A DNA stretch of 64,000 nucleotides from Trinickia soli (GTDB taxonomy: Bacteria > Pseudomonadota > Gammaproteobacteria > Burkholderiales > Burkholderiaceae). Numbering within the stretch: the stretch's first letter is position 1; the number at the start of each line of letters is the position of its first letter. The notes beneath the pieces are model-generated. The model saw nothing but the letters and a program-made list of their open reading frames with translations. It had not been told where the DNA came from and did no database searches. This document shows positions 38,845 to 45,102 of the stretch, piece after piece. Both the position numbers and the translations under genes were made by a program. The stretch is from positions 1 to 64,000 of the forward strand of contig NZ_PNYB01000013.1 of the NCBI RefSeq assembly GCF_002879855.1, written 5' to 3'.

Positions 38845-38967
38845 CTACGGCTCGGTCAGATCGTCAAACCATGTGCGCAACGCCTCCCAAGCCTTCAACT
38901 TCTCGACATAAGGCACGGCTGCATAGGCCAGGCTGCTCGAAGGTAGTCTGACGAGATCGAGCGAAGC
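38845..38967 (-). pseudogene. oldest 3' fragment of the DNA-deoxyinosine glycosylase gene
   Basis: On the minus strand this codes SLDLVRLPSSSLAYAAVPYV then EKLKAWEALRTWFDDL and a stop, matching the last 40 codons of the intact gene at 44602-45102. The fragment ends abruptly near 38967 and PEBP sequence begins soon after. It is most easily read as the original 3' end of the host gene, displaced by later insertions. Confidence 0.8.
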
Positions 38968-38994
38968 AGCGCGCCCATCGACCCGGTGGTCCCG

Positions 38995-39555
38995 CTAGCG
39001 CCCAAAACGCATGACGGTGCTGGTATTGGCCAGCACGTGACCCTTTATCGCCGCATGTAAAGCATCGCGCGTTAGCCCAGCCGCGAGCGCATCAGGCGCG
39101 AGGTCGAGCGCATAGATCTGCACGATATAGTGATGGGCAATCTCGCCGACCGGTGGGCACGGCCCGCGGTAAGCCGCCTGCCCGCTGACATTGAGGCCCA
39201 CACGCACGCCGGCCGGCGGCTCGGCACCCGCGGCAAGCGACGTCGTCGAAGCGGGAATGCCGTACACCACCCAATGCACAGTGCCCAAGCCTTTCGCGCC
39301 ATCCGGATCGAAGAGCGTAATCGCGAAGCTGCGCGTGCCGGCGGGTGCATTGCGCCATTGCAATGCCGGCGACACATTGCTGCCACCGCAGTCGTTCTGG
39401 CTCCCGGCATGACTCAAAGCGAGCGTGCCGCCGTCGGAAAGACCTGGTGAAGTCAGTTCGAACGCGTCTGCGGCGCAGGCAGTTATGCCGTGCAGCGACA
39501 GTACGCACAGGGTCGCGCTCAGCGCATACCGGATTGCGTTTGCGGTGCTTTTCAT
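38995..39555 (-). CDS. PEBP/YbhB-family secreted protein
   Basis: 186 aa. The signal peptide ends at ITACAADA (either a lipobox ITAC or an Ala-x-Ala site), followed by the phosphatidylethanolamine-binding fold: FELTSPGLSDGG, GGSNVSPALQWRNAP, FAITLFDPDGAKG, VHWVVYGIPAST, YRGPCPPVGEIAHHYIVQIY. This is the bacterial YbhB/YbcL type. It lies between two broken copies of the glycosylase 3' region and so appears to be cargo of the first cassette. Confidence 0.9.
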   Translation of the reverse strand: MKSTANAIRYALSATLCVLSLHGITACAADAFELTSPGLSDGGTLALSHAGSQNDCGGSNVSPALQWRNAPAGTRSFAITLFDPDGAKGLGTVHWVVYGIPASTTSLAAGAEPPAGVRVGLNVSGQAAYRGPCPPVGEIAHHYIVQIYALDLAPDALAAGLTRDALHAAIKGHVLANTSTVMRFGR

Positions 39556-39588
39556 CTCGTGCCGTCCTTTTCAAGAAATGAAACATCG

Positions 39589-39740
39589 AGGCGACGAAGC
39601 CGGCATCGCTGACCGAATTGGCCGAACGCTCCGGCCGTGCGAAAATCCAATCTATCGCGAACACTTCGAACAATGGAGCAATATGGGCTTGTCCATTTCG
39701 AAGAAGGCGCGAGCAGCGCTTGCAGTCGCGCCTTCTATTC
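39589..39740 (+). pseudogene. remnant of a TumA-type antitoxin gene
   Basis: Nucleotide-level match to the middle of the intact gene at 42179-42547 (the stretch coding LSELAERSGRAKSNLSRTLR). An extra A near 39645 shifts the frame and both ends are missing; the toxin partner is gone. It ends in CTATTC, where it is fused to the next junction block. Confidence 0.8.
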
Positions 39741-39816
39741 CATCCCCGGCGGCGCCACACCGATCACATCCCCGATCAAATACCAAAACCGGTTGGGGTT
39801 TTGGTCAATTTGGCAT
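39736..39816. repeat. cassette junction A (deleted glycosylase 3' copy plus core)
   Basis: A degraded version of the 57-bp block found in copies B, C and D, then the core CCAAAAC-N8-GTTTTGG at 39783-39804 and the box TCAATTTGGCATC. Almost the whole glycosylase 3' copy that should lie to the left has been deleted. Confidence 0.75.
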
Positions 39817-39845
39817 CCGTCCAGGGCTCGGGCGTTGAGCCTTAT

Positions 39846-43058: not shown

Positions 43059-43084
43059 GTTGGCGTCTTGGCCAATTTGACATC
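43002..43084. repeat. cassette junction C
   Basis: 57-bp block at 43002-43058, core CCAAAAC-CGGTTGGC-GTCTTGG at 43050-43071 (one mismatch in the second arm) and the end box CCAATTTGACATC to 43084. Confidence 0.85.
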
Positions 43085-43295
43085 AAGCCGAAACCACCTC
43101 GGGCGTCCAGCCCGCGTCAAATGCGGTGCTTCAATCCGAACGATTCAAGGTTTGCGGCTCCGTGCCGATATCCACGAGAGGGGGCCAATCCGAGCAACCA
43201 GGCAAGAACTTACGCCGGCCAAACGTCAGCCGGCCGGCGCTTGCAGCCAAGGTTCCTGTGTATGTCAACTCCAATAATCACAAGGTAACTCGAAT

Positions 43296-43856
43296 ATGTT
43301 CAACGTTGTCCGTGTAGTCGGCCTGACTGCGCCGATTGCTCTATTGACGGCATGCTCGCTAGTCGCTCCGCCGTACTCCCCCGATGTCGACAATATCCAG
43401 TCGCTCAAGAACGTCGCCACCGCTCACGCGAAAATCGGGACATTCGAATCCCACTCGGGTGCAAAAAACCCGTACCCGGTCCCCTTGCGCGCGAACGTAA
43501 TGAAGTCCCCGGTTGGGAACTCATTCGGCGCATACCTGGCCGACGCAATGACGAAGGAATTGCTGATGGCCGGCAAGCTTTCCCCTCAAAGCGACGTCGA
43601 AATCAAGGCAACGCTCTTGGAAAACGACATCGATACCGGTGTTGCAACCGGCACCGCGACACTGGCGGCACGCTTCATCGTGACGCGAGGTGGAACGGTA
43701 CGTTACGACCAGGTCAAGACCGCGCACACGCAATGGGATTCCGCGTTCGCGGCAATGATTGCCGTACCGAAAGCGCGTGAAGAATATCCTCTCGCCGTAC
43801 AGAAGTTACTCGGCGAGCTATACGCAGACCCCGCCTTCGTCGAGGCGATTCAATAA
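43296..43856 (+). CDS. putative lipoprotein, first of a pair
   Basis: 186 aa. Signal peptide MFNVVRVVGLTAPIALLTAC with lipobox LTAC, then SLVAPPYSPDVDNIQSLKNV. The mature part alternates strands and short helices (GNSFGAYLADAMTKELLMAG, DVEIKATLLENDIDTGVATG, TATLAARFIVTRGGTVRYDQ), broadly like YajG/LptE-type small outer-membrane lipoproteins. It carries cargo status by position between glycosylase copies C and D. Function unknown. Confidence 0.8.
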   Translation: MFNVVRVVGLTAPIALLTACSLVAPPYSPDVDNIQSLKNVATAHAKIGTFESHSGAKNPYPVPLRANVMKSPVGNSFGAYLADAMTKELLMAGKLSPQSDVEIKATLLENDIDTGVATGTATLAARFIVTRGGTVRYDQVKTAHTQWDSAFAAMIAVPKAREEYPLAVQKLLGELYADPAFVEAIQ

Positions 43857-43889
43857 CATTACCGGCCACACCACGGGAGACCCCATACA

Positions 43890-44477
43890 ATGGCATTGAT
43901 TCGAATGATCGCGGCAGGAAGCATGATCGCCGCATTGGCAGGCTGTGCTCACGAAATTTCGCTGACTGGAGACGCAAGCAAAATCCCGACGCTTTCGACC
44001 GCGCCGCTCGACAAGACAGTGGGTCTTGTCATCACGGACGATCAACTGTCGAAGGAGGTGATTACTCCCGGGGGCGGCGGTGACAAAGTGAGCTATCACC
44101 CGTACCACGACCTTGAATTGCCGATATACGTAGGGCTCGGTCATGTATTCAAGAACGTGACGAAGCTCAAGACCGCACCCGACGCAGCGACGATCCAGGC
44201 CAAGCATCTCGACTATGTGATCACGCCGACGATCAAGACCACATCCTCGTCCCCGAGCCTCCTCACGTGGCCGCCGACGGACTTCTCGGTCACGCTCGCC
44301 TGTACCGTCGCGGACCCGACCGGTCAAACCGTCGTCACCGAGGACGTGACCGGCACCGGCCACGCGGAGTTCAGCCAATTCAAGCACAACCTGAGCCTTG
44401 CTGGGCAGCTTGCGACCGCTGACGCAGTAACAAAACTGCAGTCGGCGCTGGCAGACGCTGCCGAATTGAAAAAATAG
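43890..44477 (+). CDS. putative lipoprotein, second of a pair
   Basis: 195 aa. MALIRMIAAGSMIAALAGCA has lipobox LAGC; the mature part (PLDKTVGLVITDDQLSKEVI, ELPIYVGLGHVFKNVTKL, HLDYVITPTIKTTSSS, FSVTLACTVADPTGQTVV) resembles the same class as the gene before it, 33 bp upstream, with which it should form an operon. No named family. Confidence 0.8.
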   Translation: MALIRMIAAGSMIAALAGCAHEISLTGDASKIPTLSTAPLDKTVGLVITDDQLSKEVITPGGGGDKVSYHPYHDLELPIYVGLGHVFKNVTKLKTAPDAATIQAKHLDYVITPTIKTTSSSPSLLTWPPTDFSVTLACTVADPTGQTVVTEDVTGTGHAEFSQFKHNLSLAGQLATADAVTKLQSALADAAELKK

Positions 44478-44601
44478 CGTATGCGCGGCACAGTTGAAGC
44501 AGCGTCGACAACCGTGCCATCGCTTGAAGAGCCTTGGATAAGAACGCCGGGGCGCCGGGGAAGATCCGAGATGGCGTTGCGGAGACTGGATACGGACGAC
44601 A

Positions 44602-45102
44602 CTAGACCGCCAGCCACTTTCGCAACGCCTCCCAAGCCTTCAACTTCTCGGAATAAGGCACGGCCGCATAAGCAGGACTACTCGACGGTAGCTTGATGAG
44701 ATCGAGCGACACACGGCTTTCCGCCAACGCCTGCATCCCGATCTTCGCAGCCGCCCCCCCGTTGAACGCGACCGCCGCAAGATTCGGCAACGCAGCCGCA
44801 AGCGCCGCCAGATCGTTCGTCGCATGGTCACGAATGCGGCTATCGAGGCTGCCTTCCCTTTTCGCCTTCGCAATCACATCCCACAGCCCCACCCGATGAT
44901 CGAGCAGCGCTTGCAGCCGCGCTTCGTAATCCATCCCCGGCAAATCCTCGCCGATCACATCCCCGATCAAATGCCAAAACCGGTTCTGCGGATGTGCGTA
45001 ATACCGACTCTGCGCGAGCGACGCTTCGCCGGGCAGGCTGCCGAGCACAAGCACGCGCGTATGCTCATTCACAACCGGCGCAAACGAATGCTTGAAGGTC
45101 AC
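44602..45102 (-). CDS. DNA-deoxyinosine / uracil glycosylase (UDG superfamily), intact copy D
   Basis: 166 aa from a GTG at 45102 that overlaps the ubiC stop (GTGA). VTFKHSFAPVVNEHTRVLVL then GSLPGEASLAQSRYYAHPQN gives motif 1 (GSLPGxxS); LIKLPSSSPAYAAVPYSEKL carries motif 2 near the C-terminus. This is the family annotated as DNA-deoxyinosine glycosylase, removing hypoxanthine or uracil from DNA. It is the third gene of the htpG-ubiC operon. Its 3' 126 codons exist as truncated copies B and C and fragment A to the left, so its present C-terminal half was probably supplied by the latest insertion. Confidence 0.9.
   Translation of the reverse strand: MTFKHSFAPVVNEHTRVLVLGSLPGEASLAQSRYYAHPQNRFWHLIGDVIGEDLPGMDYEARLQALLDHRVGLWDVIAKAKREGSLDSRIRDHATNDLAALAAALPNLAAVAFNGGAAAKIGMQALAESRVSLDLIKLPSSSPAYAAVPYSEKLKAWEALRKWLAV
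44926..44982. repeat. 57-bp recombination block inside the intact glycosylase gene
   Basis: Identical in sequence to the blocks at 41443-41499 and 43002-43058. Only the first arm CCAAAAC (44974-44980) is followed here by glycosylase codons (CGGTTCTGCGG) instead of GTTTTGG, as expected of the occupied host site. Confidence 0.85.

What the first reader, a model, noticed from the sequence alone, without database searches (positions are those of the whole stretch)
38845..45102. Integrase-less cassette array that repeatedly replaces the 3' end of a DNA glycosylase gene
Reading right to left, the intact deoxyinosine/uracil glycosylase gene (44602-45102) is followed by cargo, a truncated 3' copy (C, 42678-43058), cargo, another 3' copy (B, 41119-41499), cargo, a nearly deleted copy (A, 39736-39791), cargo, and finally a 3' fragment (38845-38967). 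Copies B and C break at exactly the same codon (NRFWHLIG) and keep an open frame to the stop. Coding differences among B, C and D are scattered, mostly silent and too many for recent tandem duplication. The order fits four insertions of 1.2-1.9 kb units at one site, each supplying a new 3' end and pushing the old one away. Tiny cassettes that regenerate a protein gene 3' end, stacked several deep, with toxin-antitoxin or envelope cargo and no recombinase, match no element class I know.
Basis: partly seen in the sequence, partly recalled or inferred. Interest (0 to 1): 0.9.

Follow-up and report, generated by a model that had tools for sequence, protein, structure and literature searches.

The report
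Stacked leftovers of serine-integrase islands
In bacteria of the Burkholderia family, mobile DNA has entered one DNA-repair gene again and again, bringing a spare copy of that gene together with toxin-antitoxin or defence genes, and then lost its insertion enzyme, leaving a stack of old gene ends behind.

Summary
The window (genus Trinickia by contig matches) has one intact DNA-deoxyinosine glycosylase gene followed by cargo and displaced 3' copies that start at codon 41. Before each of three copies lies the same end, TGTCAAATTGACCAAAACNNC|AA. That end recurs at this gene in six genera of Burkholderiaceae.

The element is not enzyme-less by nature. In genome G122 the native gene is split at codon 40. 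Its 5' fragment is followed by an inverted copy of the end, a 588-aa large serine recombinase, a full spare glycosylase gene overlapping the recombinase stop, about 34 kb, the end, and the native 3' part. The two ends join into a palindromic attP around an AA core. Joining the flanks gives one in-frame gene, 90-96% identical to a related genome of the same genus.

So the window most likely holds fossil, stacked right halves of serine-integrase islands whose left end and recombinase are gone. Intact genes can be hybrids of native 5' and foreign 3' parts; in G092 the switch is at the core.

Shared cassettes are about as diverged as their flanks, so they are old. Closest known kind: SCC with pseudo-SCC. 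New: mid-gene target, spare copy, recombinase loss, family-wide arrays. How the recombinase was lost is inferred.

The parts
44602..45102 (-). Intact DNA-deoxyinosine glycosylase gene (D), the target gene
   Evidence: PF03167, TIGR04274
44984..44985 (-). AA of codon 40: presumed crossover dinucleotide (attB core) in the intact gene
   Evidence: position read; core inferred
43890..44477 (+). Cargo of unit 1: lipoprotein-like gene (by eye), also in G059, G063, G154
   Evidence: no Pfam or NCBIfam match; relatives at the locus
43296..43856 (+). Cargo of unit 1: second lipoprotein-like gene (by eye)
   Evidence: no Pfam or NCBIfam match; relatives at the locus
43060..43084 (-). Right end (attR P arm plus AA core) of unit 1
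42678..43058 (-). Displaced 3' copy C (open)
42179..42547 (+). Cargo of unit 2: winged-helix regulator, presumed antitoxin partner of TumE
   Evidence: PF25212, E 3.4e-23; pairing inferred from the order TumE/HTH in several genomes
41638..42168 (+). Cargo of unit 2: TumE toxin family
   Evidence: PF20126, E 4.7e-06, above its cut-off
41501..41525 (-). Right end of unit 2
41119..41499 (-). Displaced 3' copy B (open)
40402..40890 (-). Cargo of unit 3: first gene of an unknown pair
   Evidence: no match in Pfam, NCBIfam, PADLOC; same pair at the locus in G004, G005, G007
39846..40412 (-). Cargo of unit 3: second gene of the pair; has an R-x4-H stretch like HEPN nucleases (by eye, recalled motif)
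39793..39817 (-). Right end of unit 3
39736..39791 (-). Displaced 3' copy A, short remnant with a stop
39585..39714 (+). Remnant of a second TumE-partner regulator gene
   Evidence: repeats D4 and D6; tblastn
38995..39555 (-). PEBP family gene, last cargo before the end fragment
   Evidence: PF01161, E 1.9e-35
38845..38967 (-). 3' end fragment of the glycosylase gene, oldest visible copy
   Evidence: match at 38866-38970

Best explanation
The array is the eroded, stacked right-hand side of islands that integrate by a large serine recombinase (LSR) into codon 40 of the glycosylase gene. A complete island is: left end (inverted P arm) - LSR gene - full spare glycosylase gene overlapping the LSR stop - cargo - right end (P arm). 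Entry at the AA core cuts the native gene in two, and the spare copy keeps the function. Later the native 5' fragment, left end and LSR are lost, by exchange at the core or by recombination between the two 5' parts. This leaves one intact gene, the cargo, the right end and the displaced native 3' part. The intact gene again offers an attB, so the next island enters there and pushes the older unit away. Shown by sequence: the site, the conserved ends, one complete island, its precise insertion, 3' replacement in related genomes, varied cargo. Inferred: that this LSR catalyses entry, how the LSR was lost, that the window's units once had such an LSR, and that the spare copy is functional.
For: Complete island in G122 with LSR (PF00239, PF07508, PF13408), inverted left end, and gene start overlapping the LSR stop. 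Left and right ends share 18 mirrored bases, each 5 bases from AA. G122 flanks joined at AA give an in-frame 167-codon gene, 95.8% (5') and 90.4% (3') identical to G066; the island's own copy is 72-74% identical to it. The displaced block of G122 is colinear with G066 from codon 40 on at 89-94%. Right ends: 33 filtered sites in 25 genomes and six genera. Seven motif-free genomes of that genus have a single gene with 3' parts 85-98% alike; G066, G092 and native G122 keep 5' parts of 91-98% but 3' parts of 76-78, 69-73 and 79-82% against them. G092 switches from native to island type at bases 117-120. G290 has nested halves of two gene types. G158 has an LSR remnant beside the gene. 3' part incongruent in Trinickia.
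Against: Only one complete island was found; LSR matches at E 1e-30 are in 14 of 299 family genomes, and only those of G122 and G158 are known to lie at the gene. In G158 the LSR remnant follows the intact gene, not precedes it. No LSR trace or left end in Trinickia arrays. The switch point is not always the core: about base 77 in G007 and about base 290 in native G122. The outer-motif shift of 5 bases described for attB of this enzyme class (PMC3783163, passages) is not evident here. A short tyrosine recombinase gene is in G122 and G736 and as a remnant in G158, so a second enzyme could take part.
Confidence: 0.8

Rival explanations
1. The units [3' gene half - cargo - right end] are themselves mobile circles moved in trans by an LSR: a serine-recombinase counterpart of integron gene cassettes, with the glycosylase gene as landing gene.
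For: Uniform right ends with varied cargo and order. The G092 gene switches at the AA itself, as an exchange of a cassette circle would give. An island that holds both attP and a spare attB could split itself at the core (inference).
Against: No circle seen or testable. Shared cassettes are about as diverged as the flanks, so recent movement is not shown. Other genes switch elsewhere.
Confidence: 0.12
2. A tyrosine recombinase drives entry, in the way phages that replace the 3' end of a host gene do (e14 and icd; recalled). The short tyrosine recombinase of the larger islands is the enzyme.
For: PF00589 protein in G122, a relative in G736 and a remnant in G158; inverted arms flank the core.
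Against: In G122 the joined ends hold no gene sequence beyond the AA, so the attP does not carry the gene's 3' end; the tyrosine recombinase lies mid-island, while the LSR abuts the left end. No tyrosine recombinase match in the window array.
Confidence: 0.05
3. Tandem duplication and homologous recombination within each lineage, without any site-specific step.
For: Copies are in tandem; the 57-base identical tract in D, C and B and the mosaic gene of G007 show that homologous recombination acts on them.
Against: The same end precedes displaced copies in 25 genomes; G122 shows a foreign island exactly between the two native halves; 3' parts are incongruent.
Confidence: 0.03

Closest known systems
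Staphylococcal cassette chromosome (SCC) with recombinase-less pseudo-SCC in tandem (PMC2900268, passages seen)
   Same: Islands at one chromosomal gene, moved by serine recombinases of the large kind (Ccr; class recalled), stacked in tandem, some units without recombinase but with the site sequence kept.
   Different: Other target gene, entered in mid-gene at codon 40 of 166 instead of at the 3' end of orfX; a full spare copy of the target gene lies in the island; no ccr genes were searched for or seen.
Serine-integrase phages and islands with attP/attB of the A118 or phiC31 kind (PMC3783163, passages seen)
   Same: LSR domain set, palindromic attP with a central dinucleotide, short attB in a gene, attL and attR after entry.
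   Different: Spare target gene overlapping the recombinase stop, and arrays of LSR-less right halves.
Cis-mobilizable elements and accretion (term recalled; PMC7563491 and PMC5704250 seen as search listing only)
   Same: Units that kept attachment sites but lost the recombinase, piled up at one site.
   Different: Only the right-hand site is kept here; the left-hand site is replaced by an intact gene.
e14/icd type gene-end replacement (recalled)
   Same: Entry replaces the 3' end of a host gene and the gene stays intact.
   Different: There the attP itself carries the gene end; here a separate spare gene does.
Integron gene cassettes (recalled)
   Same: Array of small units, many toxin-antitoxin, with a shared site between them.
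   Different: No sign of an integron integrase; the shared site is a recombinase arm plus a gene half.

Membership tests
Integrative element of a large serine recombinase | LSR gene with Resolvase, Recombinase and zinc-ribbon domains at one border | tested here: met
   Met in G122; remnant in G158; not present in the window array
Integrative element of a large serine recombinase | attP and attB that share a central dinucleotide; precise entry | tested here: met
   G122: palindromic attP around AA, joined flanks give an in-frame gene
Integrative element of a large serine recombinase | Both attL and attR present | tested here: inconclusive
   Both in G122; in the window only right ends
Integrative element of a large serine recombinase | Recombination by the enzyme | not testable with these tools
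   needs a bench assay
SCC / pseudo-SCC | Entry at the 3' end of orfX (rlmH) | tested here: not met
   Target is a glycosylase gene, entered at codon 40
SCC / pseudo-SCC | ccr recombinase genes in at least one unit | not tested
   No search with Ccr sequences was made
SCC / pseudo-SCC | Recombinase-less units in tandem that keep the site sequence | tested here: met
   Three right ends in the window, no LSR match
Integron | Integron integrase with attC sites | not tested
   No specific search was made; the shared site is explained as an LSR arm
Tyrosine-integrase element that replaces a gene end (e14 type) | attP carries the 3' end of the target gene | tested here: not met
   G122 joined ends hold only the palindrome around AA

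The most novel reading that the evidence does not exclude
A serine-recombinase cassette system. The LSR splits its own island at the spare attB into a recombinase module [left end - LSR - gene 5' half] and cassette circles [gene 3' half - cargo - right end]. Cassettes then enter and leave the glycosylase gene at the AA core in trans, each restoring the gene, as integron cassettes do with a tyrosine recombinase. Not excluded: the G092 gene switches at the core itself, and cassette sets and order vary.
Probability: 0.15. Interest if true: 0.88.

Novelty: new variant of a known kind. Interest (0 to 1): 0.63.

Why it matters
It gives a testable account of how integrase-less cassette arrays with regenerated gene ends arise: a mid-gene serine-recombinase island carries a spare copy of its target and sheds the recombinase while the gene stays whole. 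The signature (repeated attR arms before displaced gene halves) can be used to find other fossil islands and their cargo. It marks one DNA-repair gene as a recurrent landing site across Burkholderiaceae for toxin-antitoxin and defence genes, including JetBCD genes of a Wadjet-type system and an Mrr-type nuclease, and supplies a defined LSR, attP and attB to test.

Tried and rejected
Rejected as main cause: tandem duplication. A tyrosine-recombinase core was considered because of the inverted arms; G122 then showed the LSR at the left end. A phage source: the only exact motif hit in viral contigs lies in a phage structural gene. The end on plasmids or phages: only weak, partial hits. LSR relatives on plasmids and phages are all below 60% identity (best rows listed 38.9% and 34.1%); none in viral contigs. 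Glycosylase relatives there are all below 60%; the one plasmid hit whose surroundings I looked at has ordinary neighbours; none in viral contigs.

Weak points. The upstream divergences were computed without gapped alignment and are unsound for distant pairs; I used that call only as a lead to the pair G007/G009, aligned. In one search the filter itself required AA and a gene-like right half: of 42 rows 33 passed, 9 were dropped; of these 9, four look like sites (three with AA, one with GC) and five like chance, so AA holds in 36 of 37. For the 12 LSR genomes other than G122 and G158, printed coordinates put the LSR far from the gene in five; seven were not checked. Five of the six genera outside the window's have fewer genomes sampled than exist, since searches drew samples. 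In one search only the first 305 residues of the JetC-like protein were given and the JetA-like one was not. I could not support a reading of the short stretch before the intact gene in G290 as an LSR tail and do not claim it. The names nucleotidyltransferase/HEPN for the PDC-M05A/B pair, and the HEPN-like motif in 39846-40412, are recalled or by eye.

Literature. Searches (three of them with no hit at all: 63, 72, 73) showed no paper on this locus in their listings. Passages were seen in PMC3783163, PMC2900268 and PMC10083194 (no occurrence of glycosylase or Burkholderia in its main text). Other papers were seen as search listings only.
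Full report
OBSERVATION. The window holds one intact DNA-deoxyinosine glycosylase gene (44602-45102, minus strand) and, downstream of it, two open 3' copies (C, B), a short remnant (A) and an end fragment. 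The copies start at codon 41 (CGG) and differ from the intact gene mostly by silent changes.

SPREAD. In the genus, 9 of 11 genomes have extra pieces of the gene. The end motif (29 bases, up to 2 mismatches) is in 13 of 299 family genomes and the reversed control in none. An exact 16-base core gave 30 matches in 23 of 398 genomes against 1 for the control. Of the 30, 25 (in 18 genomes) lie at this gene's locus, one of them being the inverted left end in G122; five genomes hold one match each with no trace of the gene in the 3 kb held around it. A longer exact motif is in none of the 386 genomes outside the family among 399 searched in the order. In the loci I held, 42 rows lie within 4 mismatches; 33 passed a filter for AA and a gene-like right half, in 25 genomes and six genera. 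The consensus is TGTCAAATTGACCAAAACNCC-AA-CCGGTTCTGG. The left arm is conserved even where the gene halves to its right differ strongly between genera, so the end itself seems to be under constraint.

CARGO. Units between the same borders differ: TumE with a winged-helix partner, the 40402/39846 pair, ParDE, the PADLOC pair PDC-M05A/B, two lipoprotein-like genes and a PEBP gene, in different sets and orders. Larger units carry JetB, JetC and JetD genes of a Wadjet-type system (G750) or an Mrr-type nuclease (G122). Shared units are about as diverged as the htpG-ubiC-glycosylase block beside them: the 40402/39846 unit is 87% identical to G004 and G007 (flanks 82%), the TumE unit 82% to G007 (82%), the lipoprotein unit 81% to G059 (80%) and 78% to G154 (79%). 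Between these species the units are therefore old.

THE COMPLETE ISLAND. In G122 the gene's place begins with 119 bases of native gene ending in AA. Next come AGACC and TTTGGTCAATTTGACACC, the exact inverse of the right end, then a 588-codon gene whose stop overlaps the start of a full glycosylase gene. About 34 kb further on lie the right end, AA, and the native 3' part. The 588-aa protein has the Resolvase, Recombinase and zinc-ribbon domains of a large serine recombinase and matches solved serine recombinases weakly (YokA, E 5.5e-7; phiC31 integrase, 0.0027). Right end, AA and left end joined make a palindrome with 18 mirrored bases, each 5 bases from the AA, as expected of an attP of this class. 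PMC3783163 (passages) describes an outer zinc-domain motif at positions 16-24 of the half-site and an inner domain assumed to bind alike in attP and attB. Here TTTGG is at positions 6-10 of both P arms and T(T/C)TGG at the same positions of the gene's right half. The 5-base shift of the outer motif in attB is not evident.

INSERTION AND REPLACEMENT. Joining the G122 flanks at AA gives one in-frame 167-codon gene, 95.8% (5') and 90.4% (3') identical to G066, while the island's own copy is 72-74% identical to it. The displaced block of G122 is colinear with G066 from codon 40 on at 89-94%, so G066 shows the state before this island came. In this genus, seven motif-free genomes have a single gene with 3' parts 85-98% alike. 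G066, G092 and the native G122 gene keep 5' parts of 91-98% but have 3' parts of 76-78, 69-73 and 79-82% against those seven (7 of the 13 motif-free genomes of the 16 in the genus were compared). G092 switches from native to island type between bases 117 and 120, at the AA. Against a purely core-based exchange: the native G122 gene keeps native type to about base 290, and in G007 foreign sequence starts near base 77 although its upstream genes are about 95% identical to G009. The displaced copy in G092 is not of native type either. Homologous recombination clearly acts as well: in the window the first 57 bases after the core are identical in D, C and B while the rest is 78-85% identical, best read as gene conversion. 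In Trinickia the 3' part rejects the upstream tree (AU p 0.001) while three upstream control slices do not reject theirs (p 0.21-0.28); support within the 3' tree is low except for G002 with G007 (98).

INTERMEDIATES. G290 keeps a 5' fragment (residues about 4-41) of another gene type just before its intact gene. After it come cargo, a right end and a 3' part of the intact gene's type, then more cargo, a second right end and a 3' part of the other type: the nested order expected from two islands in one native gene. G158 has an LSR remnant (about 47% identical, two stops) beside the gene, but after it rather than before it. No other LSR match was found at the loci examined. In the family sample 14 of 299 genomes have an LSR match at E 1e-30; the 12 besides G122 and G158 are 32-39% identical, five of them on another contig or far from the gene and seven not checked. 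In genus g25, 2 of 16 genomes have a match, in the genus of G158 2 of 60.

MECHANISM. Shown by sequence: one precise site, conserved right ends, one complete island with a palindromic attP, 3' replacement, stacking. Inferred: the LSR catalyses entry; the spare copy keeps the repair function while the native gene is split; the left part with the LSR is then lost. Loss could go by exchange at the core, which fits G092 but is not among the pairings allowed by the model of PMC3783163, or by homologous recombination between the two 5' parts, which fits G007. After loss the gene is whole and offers a new attB, so islands stack and only right ends remain. That the window's own units once had such an LSR is inferred from the identical ends and site, not seen.

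VERDICT. The missing enzyme exists in a relative and is of a known class. I call it a new variant of a known kind: like SCC with pseudo-SCC in logic (PMC2900268, passages) but not a member, with a mid-gene target, a spare target gene and recombinase loss in nearly all loci examined. The searches listed no paper on it.

Noticed in passing
window:39846-40890: Conserved gene pair (also at this locus in G004, G005, G007) with no match in Pfam, NCBIfam or PADLOC; the second protein has an R-x4-H stretch like HEPN nucleases. Candidate unknown toxin-antitoxin or defence pair.
   Followed up: partly
G122 22081-22674, G736 13601-14236 and G158 near 7667 (oriented loci): A short tyrosine recombinase (about 200 aa, catalytic part only) recurs in the larger islands, including both with LSR traces.
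   Followed up: partly
L227 (G750), oriented 11728-17286: A unit between the intact gene and the right end carries JetB, JetC and JetD genes of a Wadjet-type system.
   Followed up: partly
L111 (G006), oriented 5157-5649: A second nearly full-length but diverged and frame-shifted glycosylase copy with its own 5' end lies downstream of the intact gene.
   Followed up: no
L103 (G003), oriented 3164-3240: A glycosylase 5' fragment ending at HP, just before the core, lies downstream of the TumE unit; a possible left-junction relic without the left end.
   Followed up: no
L114 (G004:C64), oriented 9874-10130: A glycosylase 3' end and a right-end motif lie on another contig of G004, without a gene copy after the motif.
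   Followed up: no
L110-L230 loci, genera g3, g12, g21: Two strongly different glycosylase types occur at the same place after htpG/ubiC, sometimes within one genus or one locus (G290), as if whole alleles had been swapped.
   Followed up: partly
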